Source: Desulfovibrionaceae bacterium
GTDB lineage: Bacteria; Desulfobacterota; Desulfovibrionia; Desulfovibrionales; Desulfovibrionaceae
Assembly (NCBI GenBank): GCA_015233395.1
Contig: JADFXV010000033.1
Coordinates: forward strand, 1 to 34,826
Direction: 5' to 3'
DNA: 34,826 nucleotides
The notes beneath the pieces are model-generated. The model worked only from the letters and a program-made list of their open reading frames with translations. It ran no database searches and was not told where the DNA came from. How positions within the stretch are numbered: position 1 is the stretch's first letter; each line of letters begins with the position of its first letter. Of the stretch, positions 27,625 to 34,390 are shown piece after piece. The position numbers and the translations under genes were made by a program.

Positions 27625-27701
27625 CGGGATGTAGCGCAGCCTGGTAGCGCACCTGAATGGGGTTCAGGGGGCCGGAGGTTCAAATCCTCTCATCCCGACC
27701 A
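27625..27701 (+). tRNA. tRNA-Pro (anticodon GGG)
   Basis: 77 nt fold into a full cloverleaf: acceptor CGGGATG/CATCCCG, D-arm GCGC/GCGC, anticodon stem CCTGA/TCAGG with loop ATGGGGT (anticodon GGG), T-arm GGAGG/CCTCT with TTCAAAT, and encoded ACCA. It reads Pro codons CCC and CCU. Its 3' end is the likely integration site of the element to the right. Confidence 0.95.
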
Positions 27702-28039: not shown

Positions 28040-29071
28040 CTAGTCCAGCTCCGGCAGGAGGGCCGCAGCGCGTTCCTCGTCGCCGGGCATGATGTGCCCA
28101 TACCTGCCGAGGGTCATACTCGGATTCGCGTGCCCCATCATAGCACTGACCGTCCTCACCGACGCGCCCTTGGACAACAGGGTTGAGCAGAACAGGTGCC
28201 GGATATCATAGGAAATGATGTCGTCTGATATGCCAGCTTTCTTGCAAGCTGTCCTGAAGGCCTTGCTGATACGCTTCAATTGGCGTCCCTGGTATTCCAC
28301 TATGAACTCAGTTTGAGCCTCAGCTTTCTTGAGTTTGAGCTTTTCCAGGAACTTCGGGGACACCTTCACGCGTCTCCAGGCCTTGGTTTTCCTACCGTAG
28401 ACGCGGACGTAGCCGCTGTCCCAGTCCACGTGTTTCCACTTGAGGGCAAGCAACTCGGATTCGCCTGTGCGAACCCCGAGGTTGTACGCCACTTCGACAG
28501 CCCATGCGAGGTGCGGCGGAGCGACTTCGATGATCTTCTTCACGTCTTCGTGAGTAAGCTTGAAGTCCTTGGGCGCTTCCTTCCGCTTGGACCAAAGCTC
28601 CAGCGGGTTGCGGTTGATGATCCGGTGCCTGACAGCCCACTGAAACATGCATTTGATGTAGCTGAGGTAGCGATCAACGGTGATCGGCGAGCGCCCTTTG
28701 CGGATGCCGTGGATGAAGTTGACCAAGTATTGCTGGGTCAGTTGCTCAACCGGCACCACGGCTATCTCGGGCAGGATTTCCTTGTTCAGCGTGTGAGCGA
28801 ACTCGTCAACCCAGCGGGCTCGGCCAGCGGCCTTCTTGTCCTGGTGCCATGCGACAGCGATTTGATCCGCATAGACAGGCTGTCCCGGCTGAAACGGTAT
28901 CGATGAAGTCACCTCCTGGTTCTGGACCTTCTTCTTTTCCTTCACGGCCAGGTCAAAAGCCTTCGCTTCTGCGAGAGCGCCAGGACCATTGCCAAACGTC
29001 CGGTTCTGCTGCTTACCGTTTTCACGGTAGCGAACGAACACGGTGCCATTGGGGCGTTCATGAACGCTCAT
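28040..29071 (-). CDS. int: Tyrosine site-specific recombinase (integrase)
   Basis: Integrase of the element, adjacent to and reading toward tRNA-Pro, the usual arrangement for tRNA-targeted islands. The 343-residue product has an N-terminal arm-binding region, a core-binding SAM-like domain (about 65-160, SYIKCMFQWAVRHR) and a catalytic domain with R201 (GVRTGES), K230 (GRKTK), R291 in YDIRH, H314 (MGHANPSM) and the nucleophile Y324 (GRYGH). The first box-II His is replaced by Tyr (Y288), a variant known in the family. ATG at 29071 follows AAGGAGG. The excisionase-like gene ends 12 bp upstream, so the two share a transcript. Confidence 0.95.
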   Translation of the reverse strand: MSVHERPNGTVFVRYRENGKQQNRTFGNGPGALAEAKAFDLAVKEKKKVQNQEVTSSIPFQPGQPVYADQIAVAWHQDKKAAGRARWVDEFAHTLNKEILPEIAVVPVEQLTQQYLVNFIHGIRKGRSPITVDRYLSYIKCMFQWAVRHRIINRNPLELWSKRKEAPKDFKLTHEDVKKIIEVAPPHLAWAVEVAYNLGVRTGESELLALKWKHVDWDSGYVRVYGRKTKAWRRVKVSPKFLEKLKLKKAEAQTEFIVEYQGRQLKRISKAFRTACKKAGISDDIISYDIRHLFCSTLLSKGASVRTVSAMMGHANPSMTLGRYGHIMPGDEERAAALLPELD

Positions 29072-29083
29072 GAGCTGTCCTCC

Positions 29084-29326
29084 TTACAAGGGGATGGTTT
29101 GAATTTTCCGTTTGATCGGCTTCACCTCGGATGGCTTCTCCAGGAAGCACTGGGGATCGGCCATGAAAGCATCCAGGTCCGACTGTGCGAACCGGTTCTT
29201 GGCGGGGCCGCGACGAGGGATGCGGTACTTCGTCACAATTGTTCGGAAGTAATCGTAGTTGTAGTCCAGGTAGCTTGCAGCCGACTGCGTGGTGTGGTAA
29301 GGGCCAACGGGCCTGCTCTTGTCCAT
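29084..29326 (-). CDS. Excisionase-like helix-turn-helix protein
   Basis: 80-residue protein with a MerR/AlpA-like winged HTH: YHTTQSAASYLDYNYDYFRTIVTKYRIPRRGP then RFAQSDLDAFM (each part visible at residues about 10-55). This is the size and layout of excisionases and AlpA-type regulators that control integrase direction. ATG at 29326; the ribosome site is weak. It lies 12 bp upstream of int. Function as excisionase is inferred from this position. Confidence 0.7.
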   Translation of the reverse strand: MDKSRPVGPYHTTQSAASYLDYNYDYFRTIVTKYRIPRRGPAKNRFAQSDLDAFMADPQCFLEKPSEVKPIKRKIQTIPL

Positions 29327-29567
29327 GGAGTATGCTTAACACACTGAAATAGCATGTAAATTGTGCAAGATTGATCCTGCTAAGACCTTCAACACCTCAA
29401 TCGTCAACTCCTTCATGTGGGTAAAGAACTTCATCAGCGACCCAAGGGCCTGGGCTGCCGGAGCAAACTTTTTTCAAGGTTTTTGAAAATTATTTGGGGC
29501 AGGCGCGTTCGACGTTGACAAGGCACTGAAATTGTACATTGACAATCAATATCTGTTTCAATGAGAC

Positions 29568-29604
29568 ATAAAAAACGGCAAAAGACACTGAGTCTCCTGC
29601 CGTT
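29568..29604 (-). terminator. Second of two tandem terminators after the 45-aa ORF
   Basis: On the minus strand a 13-bp stem (29592-29604 with 29574-29586, two G-U pairs) with loop TCAGT is followed by a TTTTTT run (29570-29575). Confidence 0.8.
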
Positions 29605-29613
29605 CAAAGAGGT

Positions 29614-29654
29614 AAAAAAGAAAGGAAGCCACTCGTAAAGAGCAACTTCCCTTC
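29614..29654 (-). terminator. First of two tandem terminators after the 45-aa ORF
   Basis: On the minus strand GAAGGGAAGTTGCTC (29640-29654) pairs with GAGTGGCTTCCTTTC (29620-29634), 15 bp with several G-U pairs, loop TTTAC. It is followed by TTTTTT (29614-29619), 12 bp after the ORF stop. Confidence 0.85.
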
Positions 29655-29666
29655 CCGAAATACTCT

Positions 29667-29804
29667 TCAACGTTTTTTTCGAAGTACCTCATCAATCATG
29701 ATGACGACGACGACTTTCAACGTTTTAAAAAGTATTTCTCTGGCGAGTTGTGACTTTAATATTTGCTGAGCTACTCCTAAAGAAGCAGTCACCACTAAAG
29801 CCAT
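29667..29804 (-). CDS. 45-residue basic hydrophobic small protein, novel
   Basis: Too short for usual gene finders. The frame reads MALVVTASLGVAQQ, ILKSQLAREILFKTLK, VVVVIMIDEVLRKKR, ending in TGA. It is rich in aliphatic residues with net charge about +5 and a basic C-terminus. AAGGAGGT (29808-29815) is a near-perfect Shine-Dalgarno with correct spacing. The start codon sits in an 11-bp inverted repeat (AAAGCCATATG/CATATGGCTTT, arms 29833-29843 and 29797-29807) with the Shine-Dalgarno in the loop, so folding could block initiation. Two intrinsic terminators follow. Layout and composition recall type I toxin genes, but no homology is known to me and an antisense RNA is not evident. Not related in frame to its neighbours. 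Confidence 0.6.
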   Translation of the reverse strand: MALVVTASLGVAQQILKSQLAREILFKTLKVVVVIMIDEVLRKKR

Positions 29805-29843
29805 ATGACCTCCTTCTGCAAAAGGGTTTCGCCATATGGCTTT
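29797..29843 (-). promoter_or_regulatory. Start-codon-sequestering inverted repeat
   Basis: Perfect 11-bp arms AAAGCCATATG and CATATGGCTTT, 25 nt apart, enclose the AAGGAGGT site and contain the ATG of the 45-aa ORF. Upstream, TTTACT (29865-29870) with TATATA (29843-29848) is a possible promoter. If transcription starts at its nominal +1, the outer arm would be partly lost, so the repeat may instead act as a DNA operator. Confidence 0.6.
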
Positions 29844-30039
29844 ATATATCTTTACAAAAAGATCAGTAAAAAACAGATATGAATGACTAAAAGGACAAGT
29901 TGATCTTAGTCTTTATGAGACATTGTTAAACACAAGCTTTAAAGCAATTAATTATTAACGGAAAAGGAATCGACATGACATTGTCAAATTAACTCAAACA
30001 CCTTCGACACTATTGAGCTTGATTTAGTGCTTCGGCAGG

Positions 30040-30068
30040 GGGTGGAGGTGGTGGCGATGGTGGCGATG
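30040..30068. repeat. G-rich arm of long-range inverted repeat
   Basis: GGGTGGAGGTGGTGGCGATG followed by GTGGCGATG. It matches the complement of 30383-30411 at 27 of 29 positions. GG-runs could also form a two-tier G-quadruplex. Confidence 0.8.
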
Positions 30069-30172
30069 AAATTTGAAACCTATTTGTAAAATAAATTCAA
30101 AATAAAACATTATTCTTCTGTTTAGAACAAAAGAAATTTCTTTGATTTAGTTACAGGATTTCAATCTTCATT

Positions 30173-30337: not shown

Positions 30338-30374
30338 TCACAAGGGTAAATGTATTTTGATTTTAAAATAACTT

Positions 30375-30485
30375 TTAAAAATCATCGCCACCACCGCCAC
30401 CATCTCCACCCGTTTTTTTATTTAATATTTTCATATGGTTAAAGTCTGGAATGGTATGAAGCACTAGCTCTTGTAGTGACGGCAT
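30375..30485 (-). CDS. Possible 36-residue Gly/Asp-tailed peptide
   Basis: Open frame MPSLQELVLHTIPDFNHMK followed by ILNKKTGGDGGGGGDDF, starting 39 bp after the ATPase stop on the same strand. The Gly/Asp tail is encoded by the C-rich (plus-strand) arm of the inverted repeat. A leader-like front and a Gly-rich tail recall peptide precursors, but no Shine-Dalgarno or modifying enzyme is present. Could be a chance frame through the repeat. Confidence 0.22.
   Translation of the reverse strand: MPSLQELVLHTIPDFNHMKILNKKTGGDGGGGGDDF
30383..30411. repeat. C-rich arm of long-range inverted repeat
   Basis: Complement of 30040-30068 at 27 of 29 positions, followed on the plus strand by a run of seven T (30413-30419). 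Confidence 0.8.
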
Positions 30486-30524: not shown

Positions 30525-32258
30525 TTAGATCGGGGTATTGCCGTGGGTCTTCTTCGTGAACGTCAGGAAGCGACCATTCTTGCGATTATCCGAGAACTTC
30601 AACAACCAGCCATTGACCTCCAGGACAGGTACATACTTCTTGAGGATCTTTGAGAACAATTGCGGGGTTGAAGGAATGTAATCTGCCGCACGATCCAGGG
30701 CCAGCACGTGATCCGAAAACGCTTGATGGCACTGGCTGACCGTTCCAGTAACCTCATGAAGACCTGTTCCTTCAAGAGCATCAAGGAAATCAATCAGCCC
30801 AAGGATAAACTTGTCGGCGGCGATGCTTGATCCATAGCCCCGGTCCATGGCTTGCTTCATGGCTTCCTGGGCTTTGGCTGCGCTGAAACCGTTCTTTTCT
30901 CCAATCTCTTCCGCAATCGCCGATATCCACAGGGCAAAGTCAGCCATTCTGGGGCGATGAGTGAGTTTCACCGATGGTAAACGTCTTATCGCTCCGCAAA
31001 GAACATTGAGCGCGCCTCCGAGGATACGGGGCTTGGCAGCTTCAAATTCGGACATAACTTCGGATTCATAACGTCTGTTTTCTTCACTAATCCGGCTAAG
31101 CTCGATGCTAATAGTTCTGTCCATCAAATCTTGAGCATCATAAGGAATGTTGATTCCCGTGATAATGATGGGCTTTTTGAATGAATACGTGATTACATCA
31201 TTATCAGTGTACAGTTTTTTCTTACCGAATCCGCCTCCAGTAGTCGCCACGCACAGAAGATTTTCGATGCCTTTGGGAAGACTGGAGAGGTTGTCGAAGA
31301 AGGGGACAGCAGACTGGTTAAGCAGCAATGCCAATTCGTCTTCTCTGCTGCGGATGTACATTCCGCCTTCAAGGGAAGGATCAACCAAACCCTTGAGCAT
31401 GGTTGCCTGGGTGGTCTTAGCCGAGCCCGCTGAACCATTGAGGCAGAGGATTGCGCGAGGGATGGTGGTAATAAAAGCGGCAATCACCCAGCAAGTGACT
31501 AGGATTTTATCGTACTCATTCTCAATATTCAAGAACGGCAAAAGTTCAAGGACGTTGCCGTTCGAATCAGGCAAGGGTAATGGCGAAGAATGGGGAAAGC
31601 GGATGAATTTACAATTGACAGTTTGCGTTAAAGCCCATCCGCTTCCATCGGCTACAACATAATATCCATCGCTTCGATTCAAGTCTAATATGAGTTTATG
31701 TCCATCAAAATGCATCCGGTTGTACAATTCAATCTTATTTCTTGAAAATCTAGCCAAACTTTCTGCAAGATAAACGGCATCATTTATAACCTTGCGTTCA
31801 GGAACAGACTTAAATTTCATTACAACGTGATATAATAAGTGGTCTTTAAACACTTGCGAATCAATGTGAAGATTGAGAGGTATATTATTATGCGTTATTG
31901 TCGCCATCGGCTCGCCAGCCTTCGACAAAAAAAGCTCTAGCTTGCTAACATAGTCGTATAAACAAGTTTCAGGGTTGCTTTTGGCTTTCTTGTCTTCATC
32001 GGCAACCTTGCCACTTGCAGCTGCGAAAGGATTGGCCCCTGGCACAGGCGCAGACCGGGTTGATTGTGTAGGCGTCACCGGCGGAGCCGACACGGGCATC
32101 GACACCGGCGGCGGTGCTTTTGCTGGCTGCGTCGAGCCTAGTTCAGGGGAGGCAACAGATTCCTTTCCATAGCTAGCGAAAGGATTGACAGTAGACCTCT
32201 TGGGCTCGGAAGGTTTTTTGAGTCCTTCCAAGACCTTGTCTAACTCACTATAGGACAT
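30525..32258 (-). CDS. Mobile-element helicase-like ATPase, no primase domain
   Basis: 577-residue ATPase of the kind found in primase-helicase proteins of phages and integrated elements. Residues 1-95 are disordered and Pro/Ser/Ala-rich, with NPFA twice. The central domain has a P-loop NGSAGSAKTT (about 274-283), a Walker B-like FFDNLSSLP (321-328), then TTGGGFGKKKLYTD (339-352) and DLMDRTISIEL (377-387). The set GSAKTT, FDNLS, TGGGF, LLDR-like is, from memory, diagnostic of this family. The C-terminal 130 residues look like a winged-helix region. The usual N-terminal primase/polymerase domain is missing. ATG at 32258 follows GGAGAG; the longer frame to 32297 lacks a ribosome site. It probably acts in replication of the excised element. 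Confidence 0.8.
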   Translation of the reverse strand: MSYSELDKVLEGLKKPSEPKRSTVNPFASYGKESVASPELGSTQPAKAPPPVSMPVSAPPVTPTQSTRSAPVPGANPFAAASGKVADEDKKAKSNPETCLYDYVSKLELFLSKAGEPMATITHNNIPLNLHIDSQVFKDHLLYHVVMKFKSVPERKVINDAVYLAESLARFSRNKIELYNRMHFDGHKLILDLNRSDGYYVVADGSGWALTQTVNCKFIRFPHSSPLPLPDSNGNVLELLPFLNIENEYDKILVTCWVIAAFITTIPRAILCLNGSAGSAKTTQATMLKGLVDPSLEGGMYIRSREDELALLLNQSAVPFFDNLSSLPKGIENLLCVATTGGGFGKKKLYTDNDVITYSFKKPIIITGINIPYDAQDLMDRTISIELSRISEENRRYESEVMSEFEAAKPRILGGALNVLCGAIRRLPSVKLTHRPRMADFALWISAIAEEIGEKNGFSAAKAQEAMKQAMDRGYGSSIAADKFILGLIDFLDALEGTGLHEVTGTVSQCHQAFSDHVLALDRAADYIPSTPQLFSKILKKYVPVLEVNGWLLKFSDNRKNGRFLTFTKKTHGNTPI

Positions 32259-32896: not shown

Positions 32897-32898
32897 TT
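32861..32898. terminator. Hairpin downstream of the HTH/AbrB-like gene
   Basis: GGAGTCACAGC (32861-32871), 9-nt loop, GCTGTGACTCC (32881-32891). A TTTTT run follows on the plus strand; on the minus strand the tail is only TCCTTCC. It lies next to the minus-strand gene stop. Confidence 0.65.
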
Positions 32899-33316
32899 AA
32901 CCTTCACTCGGTAAGCTGTCGGAGAATTCGTCTTGGTCGAATTGGCCAGTGCCAATGCCAGTCCGAGTGAGAATGATTTGCTCCTTCTCATCATCGAACT
33001 CCATGCGAAATTCGGTATGCTCGGGATATTCGATCCCGGCGGCCTTGAGCTTGGAGAAGCTCATCTTGATACCGTGTTTCGTGAGCCTGACCTGAGTCGA
33101 GCTACGTTCATATAATCCAGGCAGGGACATCAGGTTCTGCGATTCGACTGAAAGTCGCATCAAGTGCTGCCGTAAGCTCTGCATTGAGCTTAGGCCCAGT
33201 TCCTTCTTTGCCTCCATGGCCGGAACGCCTTCTTCGCACAGTTGGCGAAGCTTGGTCGGATTGTACTTGCTCTCCATCACCTGCTTTTTGATCTCGGAAG
33301 AGATTTTCTTCGCCAT
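32897..33316 (-). CDS. Predicted DNA-binding protein, N-terminal HTH plus AbrB-like domain
   Basis: 139-residue protein not recognised as a named gene. Residues 10-60 are basic and helical (IKKQVMESKYNPTKLRQLCEEG, KELGLSSMQSLRQHLMRL) and look like a helix-turn-helix. Residues about 74-118 (TQVRLTKHGIKMSFSKLKAAG, then EFRMEFDDEKEQIILTR) have the strand-turn-strand pattern of an AbrB/SpoVT swapped hairpin, as in antitoxins and transition regulators. ATG at 33316 follows AGGAGGT. A promoter with TTCACC/TATATA lies 40-68 bp upstream. Likely a regulator of the element; no toxin gene is adjacent. Confidence 0.6.
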   Translation of the reverse strand: MAKKISSEIKKQVMESKYNPTKLRQLCEEGVPAMEAKKELGLSSMQSLRQHLMRLSVESQNLMSLPGLYERSSTQVRLTKHGIKMSFSKLKAAGIEYPEHTEFRMEFDDEKEQIILTRTGIGTGQFDQDEFSDSLPSEG

Positions 33317-33355
33317 TTTAGATACCTCCTGGGAATTGTTTCCTTGGAATATCTC

Positions 33356-33384
33356 TATATAGAATGGCTAAATATCACGGTGAA
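33356..33384 (-). promoter_or_regulatory. Candidate promoter of the HTH/AbrB-like gene
   Basis: On the minus strand TTCACC (33379-33384), 17-bp spacer, TATATA (33356-33361), 40 bp before the start codon. Confidence 0.45.
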
Positions 33385-34338: not shown

Positions 34339-34390
34339 TCTGCCGTTCTCAAAACTCGGCTATACAACTATGAATCTCAAGAACGGCAGA
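34339..34390. repeat. 11-bp inverted repeat downstream of the 76-aa gene
   Basis: TCTGCCGTTCT and AGAACGGCAGA, 30 nt apart, no T-run. The word CTGCCGTTC also occurs in the terminator hairpin at 29597-29605. Confidence 0.5.

What the first reader, a model, noticed from the sequence alone, without database searches (positions are those of the whole stretch)
29568..29870. Self-contained 45-residue protein unit with start-codon hairpin and twin terminators
Seen: AAGGAGGT Shine-Dalgarno, ATG inside a perfect 11-bp inverted repeat, 45 codons, TGA, then two intrinsic terminators each with a T-run, all on the minus strand within an otherwise empty AT-rich stretch. The product is aliphatic and basic. 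Such economy suggests a real monocistronic gene whose translation or transcription is controlled by the repeat. Type I toxins and small membrane-active proteins of mobile elements are the closest analogy; this is inference.
Basis: partly seen in the sequence, partly recalled or inferred. Interest (0 to 1): 0.62.

Follow-up and report, generated by a model that had tools for sequence, protein, structure and literature searches.

The report
Small cationic peptide gene beside recombinases

Summary
In detail: Shine-Dalgarno, ATG inside a perfect 12-bp inverted repeat, 45 codons, TGA and two terminator-like hairpins lie on the minus strand. It is not chance. Eighteen loci in 13 genomes of one family (the two that could be named are Pseudodesulfovibrio and Desulfovibrio) encode related 31-45-residue, hydrophobic, cationic peptides in integrative elements. 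In 17 of 18 the gene lies upstream on the same strand of a tyrosine recombinase or xis-int module. The frame is under coding selection (0 of 1000 shuffles). A predicted helix joins codons near the peptide core to the bases after the stop, beside a terminator (own versus swapped arms: 6 of 20,000). An anti-Shine-Dalgarno motif recurs in 10 of 13 loci of subfamilies I, III and IV.

No curated family fits convincingly. Best reading: a self-silenced, type-I-toxin-like peptide (about 0.4). No antisense RNA or toxicity was shown, so it is not filed as a type I system.

The parts
29667..29804 (-). 45-codon gene (with TGA), product MALVVTASLGVAQQILKSQLAREILFKTLKVVVVIMIDEVLRKKR
29808..29815 (-). Shine-Dalgarno AAGGAGGT
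29812..29825 (-). short anti-Shine-Dalgarno hairpin (CCUUU paired with GAAGG), the recurrent part of the leader (motif in 10 of 13 loci of subfamilies I, III, IV)
29833..29844 (-). outer arm of the perfect 12-bp repeat (stem not formed in L014, L015, L016)
29796..29807 (-). inner arm of the repeat, contains the ATG
29846..29853 (-). AGATAT box (AAAGATAT), shared with other genes of the elements; presumed promoter element
29767..29791 (-). P2: predicted hairpin inside codons 5-13 (covariation not significant)
29726..29738 (-). P3 5' arm in the ORF (GAAATACTTTTTA), predicted
29657..29669 (-). P3 3' arm, stop codon and bases just after it (TGAAGAGTATTTC), predicted
29618..29656 (-). P4: conserved terminator hairpin directly beside P3
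29573..29605 (-). second terminator-like hairpin; contains AACGGCA (29604-29598) and TGCCGTT (29580-29574); the AACGGC part is read here as an upstream site of the xis-int promoter
29548..29556 (-). second AGATAT box (ACAGATATT) between the gene and xis-int
29084..29326 (-). small xis-like gene (HTH_17 only at E 0.048, below its cut-off); relatives in L095, L097 and L098
28040..29071 (-). tyrosine integrase of the element, beside tRNA-Pro(GGG) 27625-27701
33349..33356 (-). AGATAT box before the 139-aa gene 32897-33316 of the same element

Best explanation
A genuine protein gene of an integrative element makes a 45-residue hydrophobic, cationic peptide. Its mRNA starts near the AGATAT box and folds so that the Shine-Dalgarno is trapped by a neighbouring CCUU segment, while the 3' half of the frame is locked by a helix to the bases after the stop, beside the terminator. 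The transcript would therefore be stable but poorly translated. When the fold is opened (processing, a helper factor, or a change in the element's state) the peptide is made and acts on the host cell, most likely at the membrane, to hold or defend the element. It works like a type I toxin. Shown: the conserved frame, the peptide family, the place beside the recombination genes, the shared box. Predicted with comparative support: the RNA folds. Inferred: transcription start, silencing, release, toxicity and membrane action.
For: Coding selection: frame 0 similarity 2.22 against 1.01 (sd 0.27) in column shuffles, 0 of 1000, on five of six subfamily I sequences. 18 loci in 13 genomes with a shared core (SKxAREILK, a hydrophobic run, then basic residues in most). 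Net charge +2 to +10. RNA: full-length folds z -2.5 to -8.9 in 13 of 13 loci of subfamilies I, III, IV (60 shuffles each); full RNA below synonymous-codon resampling in 6 of 6 subfamily I loci, z -1.9 to -3.0, 1-12 of 300 as low; P3+P4 pairing and covariation on five sequences reached by 0-1 of 500 shuffles for 4 of 5 measures, 32 of 500 for the fifth; own P3 arms -10.87 kcal/mol against -8.06 permuted, 6 of 20,000, ten sequences. Anti-SD motif next to the SD in 10 of 13 loci. SD trapping by a nearby anti-SD and a non-translatable primary transcript are described as typical of type I loci, the latter as a major hallmark, in PMC6733600 (passages read).
Against: No antisense promoter above shuffles in 8 loci, so no antitoxin is known. 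Hydrophobicity is borderline for a transmembrane helix and the helical moment is no better than shuffles; AlphaFold2 leaves the VVVVIMID stretch non-helical at low confidence. Subfamily II lacks the structured frame (full RNA z -0.6 and +1.1). In P3 itself 6 of 9 pairs never vary and one has changes on both sides; most of the covariation is in the terminator. P3 length alone is weak against synonymous resampling: 30-671 of 2000 as good; L015's P3 segment is not special (78 of 300). P2 covariation is not significant. SD accessibility is only a tendency: 0.20-0.37 in 6 of 6, but 10 of 25 control genes are as low, the ATG is not less accessible than in controls, and other RNA ends give 0.02-0.67. 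The place beside the recombinase suggests a recombination-linked role equally well.
Confidence: 0.4

Rival explanations
1. A non-toxic accessory peptide of the recombination module: made together with the recombinase and xis-int genes, it modulates integrase, excision or another element protein.
For: In 17 of 18 loci the gene lies upstream on the same strand of a short tyrosine recombinase or xis-int, in subfamily II with the 127-aa gene between. The same AGATAT box precedes both in subfamilies I, III and IV.
Against: Very hydrophobic and only 31-45 aa, unlike usual directionality factors (recalled); xis-like genes are present separately in the window, L095, L097, L098 and L127; it has its own terminator; in G342 (L021/L150) the gene stands without recombinase or integrase hit in 19 kb.
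Confidence: 0.3
2. A leader ORF: translation of the small frame decides termination at P4 and so expression of the downstream recombination genes.
For: The order ORF, terminator, recombination genes recurs; P3 spans the end of the frame and abuts P4.
Against: A separate AACGGC site and AGATAT box lie between the terminator and the recombination genes in 11 of 11 loci (and in L148, L149); the peptide core is conserved between subfamilies whose RNA differs.
Confidence: 0.12
3. A structured non-coding RNA in which the frame is incidental.
For: Strong folds and P3/P4 pairing.
Against: Coding test 0 of 1000; frame open in 18 of 18 member loci; the length change in L016 is whole codons; the peptide core is shared with subfamily II, whose frame is not structured.
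Confidence: 0.05

Closest known systems
AapA/IsoA type I toxin-antitoxin loci of Helicobacter (PMC6733600, PMC8309996; passages read)
   Same: Short hydrophobic peptide with a basic C-terminus; highly folded mRNA; Shine-Dalgarno hidden by nearby anti-SD; long-range pairing that involves the 3' end of the mRNA.
   Different: No antisense RNA found; the 3' pairing here joins codons to the bases after the stop rather than to the Shine-Dalgarno; no toxin match in PDB sequences or Pfam/NCBIfam; recurrent link to recombinase genes.
Membrane-associated type I toxins in general (TisB, Ldr, Fst, Ibs; as reviewed in PMC8309996, passages read)
   Same: Under 60 residues, hydrophobic, mostly a cationic C-terminal part.
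   Different: No clear transmembrane helix by hydropathy; no toxin family among Pfam matches up to E 10 (HMMER's filters drop most weak ones); toxicity untested.

Membership tests
type I toxin-antitoxin | small protein gene under 60 codons | tested here: met
   31-45 residues in 18 loci; coding selection for subfamily I
type I toxin-antitoxin | antisense RNA antitoxin | tested here: inconclusive
   no sigma-70-like antisense promoter above shuffles in 8 loci; but the sense promoter was not found by that scan either, and trans-encoded RNAs were not searched for
type I toxin-antitoxin | poorly translatable primary transcript with hidden Shine-Dalgarno | tested here: inconclusive
   predicted folds only: GGAGG unpaired 0.20-0.37 in 6 of 6 (10 of 25 controls as low), GGAG 0.02-0.67 in 13 loci; anti-SD motif in 10 of 13
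type I toxin-antitoxin | membrane helix of the product | tested here: inconclusive
   best 19-residue hydropathy 1.04-1.86; helical moment not above shuffles
type I toxin-antitoxin | growth inhibition on overexpression | not testable with these tools
   needs an experiment
known toxin families in Pfam, NCBIfam, PADLOC | profile match | tested here: not met
   no toxin family for the small peptides; the only matches listed for them are weak and unrelated (PF13558 E 0.2, NF007909 E 0.032)
phage protein families (PHROGs) | profile match | tested here: inconclusive
   8 of 10 without match; L005 phrog_37825 E 0.0039, L015 phrog_38012 E 0.062, both of unknown function
described RNA family | Rfam match at gathering score | tested here: not met
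   window: tRNA only; 8 related loci: none

The most novel reading that the evidence does not exclude
A previously undescribed family of type-I-toxin-like peptides is built into the recombination control region of integrative elements and tied to it by a shared promoter box. Its mRNA carries a distinct lock, a helix between codons of the peptide core and the bases after the stop, stacked on the terminator, so that peptide output is linked to the element's integration state.
Probability: 0.25. Interest if true: 0.68.

Novelty: new variant of a known kind. Interest (0 to 1): 0.52.

Why it matters
Genes of 30-45 codons are usually missed by annotation. Here a family recurs at one place in integrative elements of sulfate reducers, with peptide and, in part of it, RNA under selection, so it is directly testable. 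If toxic, it would show how such elements hold their host and would add a new mRNA lock to type I control. If not toxic, it is an overlooked small partner of a recombination module. It also shows that a sequence-and-structure RNA model can find members that a protein profile missed.

Tried and rejected
Start-codon repeat as the conserved control element: rejected, since the stem does not form in L014, L015 and L016. Second hairpin as a second terminator: it may terminate, but it is in 1 of 13 loci; only its AACGGC part recurs. P2 hairpin: predicted in all six subfamily I folds, but covariation is at shuffle level and L006/L015 use another register; kept only as a possibility. P3 helix length against synonymous resampling alone: weak, 30-671 of 2000 as good in six loci, with a codon pool taken from the same genes. 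Amphipathic helix: not above shuffles. Viral contigs: 243 and 68 pattern stretches, none confirmed as relatives; 51 contigs with the leader motif, best profile hit E 4.1 (table cut but sorted by E-value). The genome pattern scan gave 6 contigs, of which 2 (L076, L080) are members and 4 are not.

Weak hits dropped: 6 of 17 matches, 15 of 26 matches (five read; nine only scanned for a box, SD, ATG and frame, a scan that would miss GTG starts; one in G134 not examined), 2 of 17 (L144, L145). L149 (E 0.02) was kept on its architecture and a GTG start. L123 and L127 were found by the RNA model and use an ATG 11 nt after GGAGG; a 16-codon overlapping frame starts nearer in L123. Because some members were accepted on the box architecture, '18 of 18 have the box' is partly circular. 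The class search covered the same number of genomes (348) as the order search and added nothing. L021 is an exception to the genomic place: no recombinase, integrase or 127-aa gene hit in the 19 kb around it. A 25-nt copy of the tRNA-Pro anticodon arm on contig C153 was tested as the far end of the element: the element's typical genes were not found there, so unresolved.

One control was faulty: the L006 arm was taken from the wrong repeat; corrected.

Full report
What was checked. The described features are present at the stated coordinates. The repeat is 12 bp, perfect, and holds the ATG in its inner arm. The RNA from 29844 to 29612 on the minus strand is far more stable than dinucleotide shuffles (z -7.5).

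Where it lies. The window is one whole contig of a 3.37-Mb genome. Right of tRNA-Pro(GGG) at 27625-27701 comes an integrative element: a tyrosine integrase (28040-29071), a small xis-like gene (29084-29326), the small gene, a 577-590-aa gene, a 139-aa gene, a DUF6573 gene and a further small gene, all on the minus strand. The contig ends before any far end of the element was seen.

A family, not a single case. A protein search of 149 genomes of the family gave matches in 12 at E up to 1; besides the window itself two stood out, L005 (E 6.5e-5) and L006 (E 0.013), and a weak one in G148 later proved a member. A profile over 348 genomes of the order added L014, L015 and L016, and weaker hits there proved to be a second, 31-residue subfamily, L020-L024. 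A covariance model of the 3' part of the RNA, run over the order's 348 genomes, found a third group that the protein profile had missed, L112-L114, plus L123 and a second G148 locus, L127. A joint profile over 50 chosen genomes added L148 and L149. The total is 18 loci in 13 genomes, all labelled family f1 like the window. Two can be named through contigs of the same length with the same peptide: Pseudodesulfovibrio sp. STD2_191 (L076) and Desulfovibrio sp. STF2_139 (L080). A draw of 395 genomes from the phylum gave no convincing member beyond the window's family (two weak matches inside frames of 280 and 1415 codons); this used the earlier profile A5, not the final one.

The peptide. Subfamily I has 45 residues in five of six members and 38 in L016; II has 31; III has 37-38; IV has 35-37. 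The shared core reads roughly S-K-x-A-R-E-I-L-K, a hydrophobic run of V/I/L, and in most members a basic end; in subfamily I the run is followed by I-[DN]-E. Net charge is +2 to +10. Five of the six subfamily I frames (L016 left out for its gap) score 2.22 in mean BLOSUM62 against 1.01 (sd 0.27) for shuffled columns, 0 of 1000; the other five reading frames score lower and hold stops. Differences at codon positions 1, 2, 3 number 249, 193, 299 over 15 pairs, a mild coding pattern. Hydropathy is borderline for a membrane helix, and amphipathicity is no more than shuffles give. AlphaFold2 with six sequences gives helices 9-17, 19-28 and 39-44, mean pLDDT 74.7 and pTM 0.39, which is too weak to settle a fold.

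The RNA. In all six subfamily I folds the ATACT of the core codons pairs with the bases after the stop at probability 0.98-1.0, directly beside the terminator hairpin. On five sequences the P3+P4 structure has 95.9% of cells paired, four pairs with changes on both sides against 1.0 in shuffles (1 of 500), and a covariation score that 0 of 500 shuffles reach; sliding the partner by 1-3 columns drops pairing to 54-65%. Three of those four pairs are in the terminator; within P3 one pair changes on both sides, two on one side and six never vary. The better evidence for P3 comes from distant subfamilies: across ten sequences of I, III and IV the own arms pair at -10.87 kcal/mol on average against -8.06 when arms are exchanged, 6 of 20,000; with one sequence per close group 41 of 20,000, and with two subfamily II sequences added 11 of 20,000. 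Individual members differ: L112 and L123 do no better than several cross pairs, and L020 shows no such helix. Full-length RNAs of 13 loci of I, III and IV have z from -2.5 to -8.9. Given the same protein, synonymous resampling folds the full RNA less well in all six subfamily I loci (1-12 of 300 as low) but not in II (78 and 263 of 300); L015's P3 segment alone is not special (78 of 300).

The leader. A CCUU-type segment lies a few bases upstream of the Shine-Dalgarno and can pair with it in 10 of 13 loci of I, III and IV, not in L123, L127 or L149; folds use it in the window, L005, L006, L015 and L112, L014 uses another hairpin and L016 has little. Mean unpaired probability of GGAGG is 0.20-0.37 in six of six subfamily I loci, against a median of 0.45 for 25 other genes of these elements, 10 of which are as low; the ATG is not less accessible than in controls. 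With other RNA ends the values spread from 0.02 to 0.67. This is a tendency and not a proof. The window's 12-bp repeat strengthens it locally.

The promoter side. An [ACT]NAGATAT box stands upstream of all 18 genes (16, L148 and L149 in the sequences of the same call). It is 47-50 nt before the ATG in 9 of 11 loci of subfamilies I, III and IV listed there, 65 nt in two, and 117-119 nt in subfamily II. A second box follows the gene in those 11 of 11 loci, with AACGGC 45-49 nt before it; in L149 the distance is 50 and in L148 46 by eye; the five subfamily II loci have neither within 420 nt. Boxes also precede the 127-139-aa gene in the window, L020 and L022-L024. The stricter A[AGT]AGATAT form does not occur in window positions 1-27600, but that part has 64% G+C against 47% in the rest, so this is a weak control. 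No sigma-70-like promoter stands out on either strand. The box is inferred, not shown, to be a promoter element. The window's second hairpin contains the AACGGC site; TGCCGTT to pair with it is present in 1 of 13 loci, so I read it mainly as part of the next gene's control region.

The neighbours. In 17 of 18 loci the next recombination gene, a short tyrosine recombinase or xis-int, lies downstream on the same strand, in subfamily II after the 127-aa gene. The exception is L021: no recombinase or integrase hit in 19 kb around it.

How it most likely works. A stable transcript is made from the box, translation is held back by the anti-Shine-Dalgarno hairpin, and the 3' half of the frame is tied to the region after the stop beside the terminator. 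Release yields a hydrophobic cationic peptide that acts on the host cell. This is how type I toxin mRNAs are described: trapping of the Shine-Dalgarno by an anti-SD up to 11 nt away and a non-translatable primary transcript as a major hallmark (PMC6733600, passages read); toxins under 60 residues, hydrophobic, often with basic C-termini (PMC8309996, passages read). Membership is not claimed: no antitoxin, no toxicity, no family match. The frequent neighbour, a recombinase or xis-int module, makes a recombination-linked accessory peptide the main rival.

Novelty. No family in Pfam, NCBIfam, PADLOC, Rfam or PDB fits convincingly (the one PDB match has E 0.4); PHROGs gave two weak matches of unknown function. 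Not every member went through every library. Paper searches (listings only, apart from passages of the two papers named) showed no description of this family; the library lacks most subscription journals.

Noticed in passing
window 30040-30095 and 30356-30411: 56-nt G-rich inverted repeat (80%) around 260 nt of AT-rich DNA, before the 577-aa gene; a similar pair stands in L014 (1874-1918 and 2228-2272). Possibly a replication origin.
   Followed up: partly
window 29548-29556, 29846-29853, 33349-33356 and related loci: A shared AGATAT box precedes several genes of these elements, with AACGGC 45-50 nt before the box of the recombination genes: an element-wide control system without an evident sigma-70 promoter.
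   Followed up: partly
window 31534-31562 and 34341-34388: Further pairs of AACGGCA in opposite orientation; 12 matches in the whole window against 5.7 expected.
   Followed up: no
L099 14407-15291, L095 14522-15478: Related elements carry a queuine tRNA-ribosyltransferase-like protein (phrog_887 E 4e-15; PADLOC DpdA only E 0.007) and a radical-SAM-like protein (just below the Pfam cut-off), which might mean modified element DNA.
   Followed up: no
L096 587(+), L098 16401(-): Other small genes behind AGATAT boxes: 54-56 residues, two CxxC pairs (zinc-ribbon-like) and a hydrophobic end.
   Followed up: no
L020, L022 leaders: Subfamily II has a long hairpin (GAGCAAGGCCCTTGGCTT...) between box and Shine-Dalgarno instead of the structured frame.
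   Followed up: no
window 29833-29837 and related leaders: An ATG, mostly as CAATG or CATGG, recurs 16-18 nt after the box start in about 9 of 13 leaders (by eye); in L016 this upstream ATG is in frame with the gene.
   Followed up: no
L105 1501-1525 (contig C153 of the window's genome): A 25-nt near copy (96%) of the tRNA-Pro anticodon arm without a tRNA gene; could be an attachment-site remnant.
   Followed up: partly
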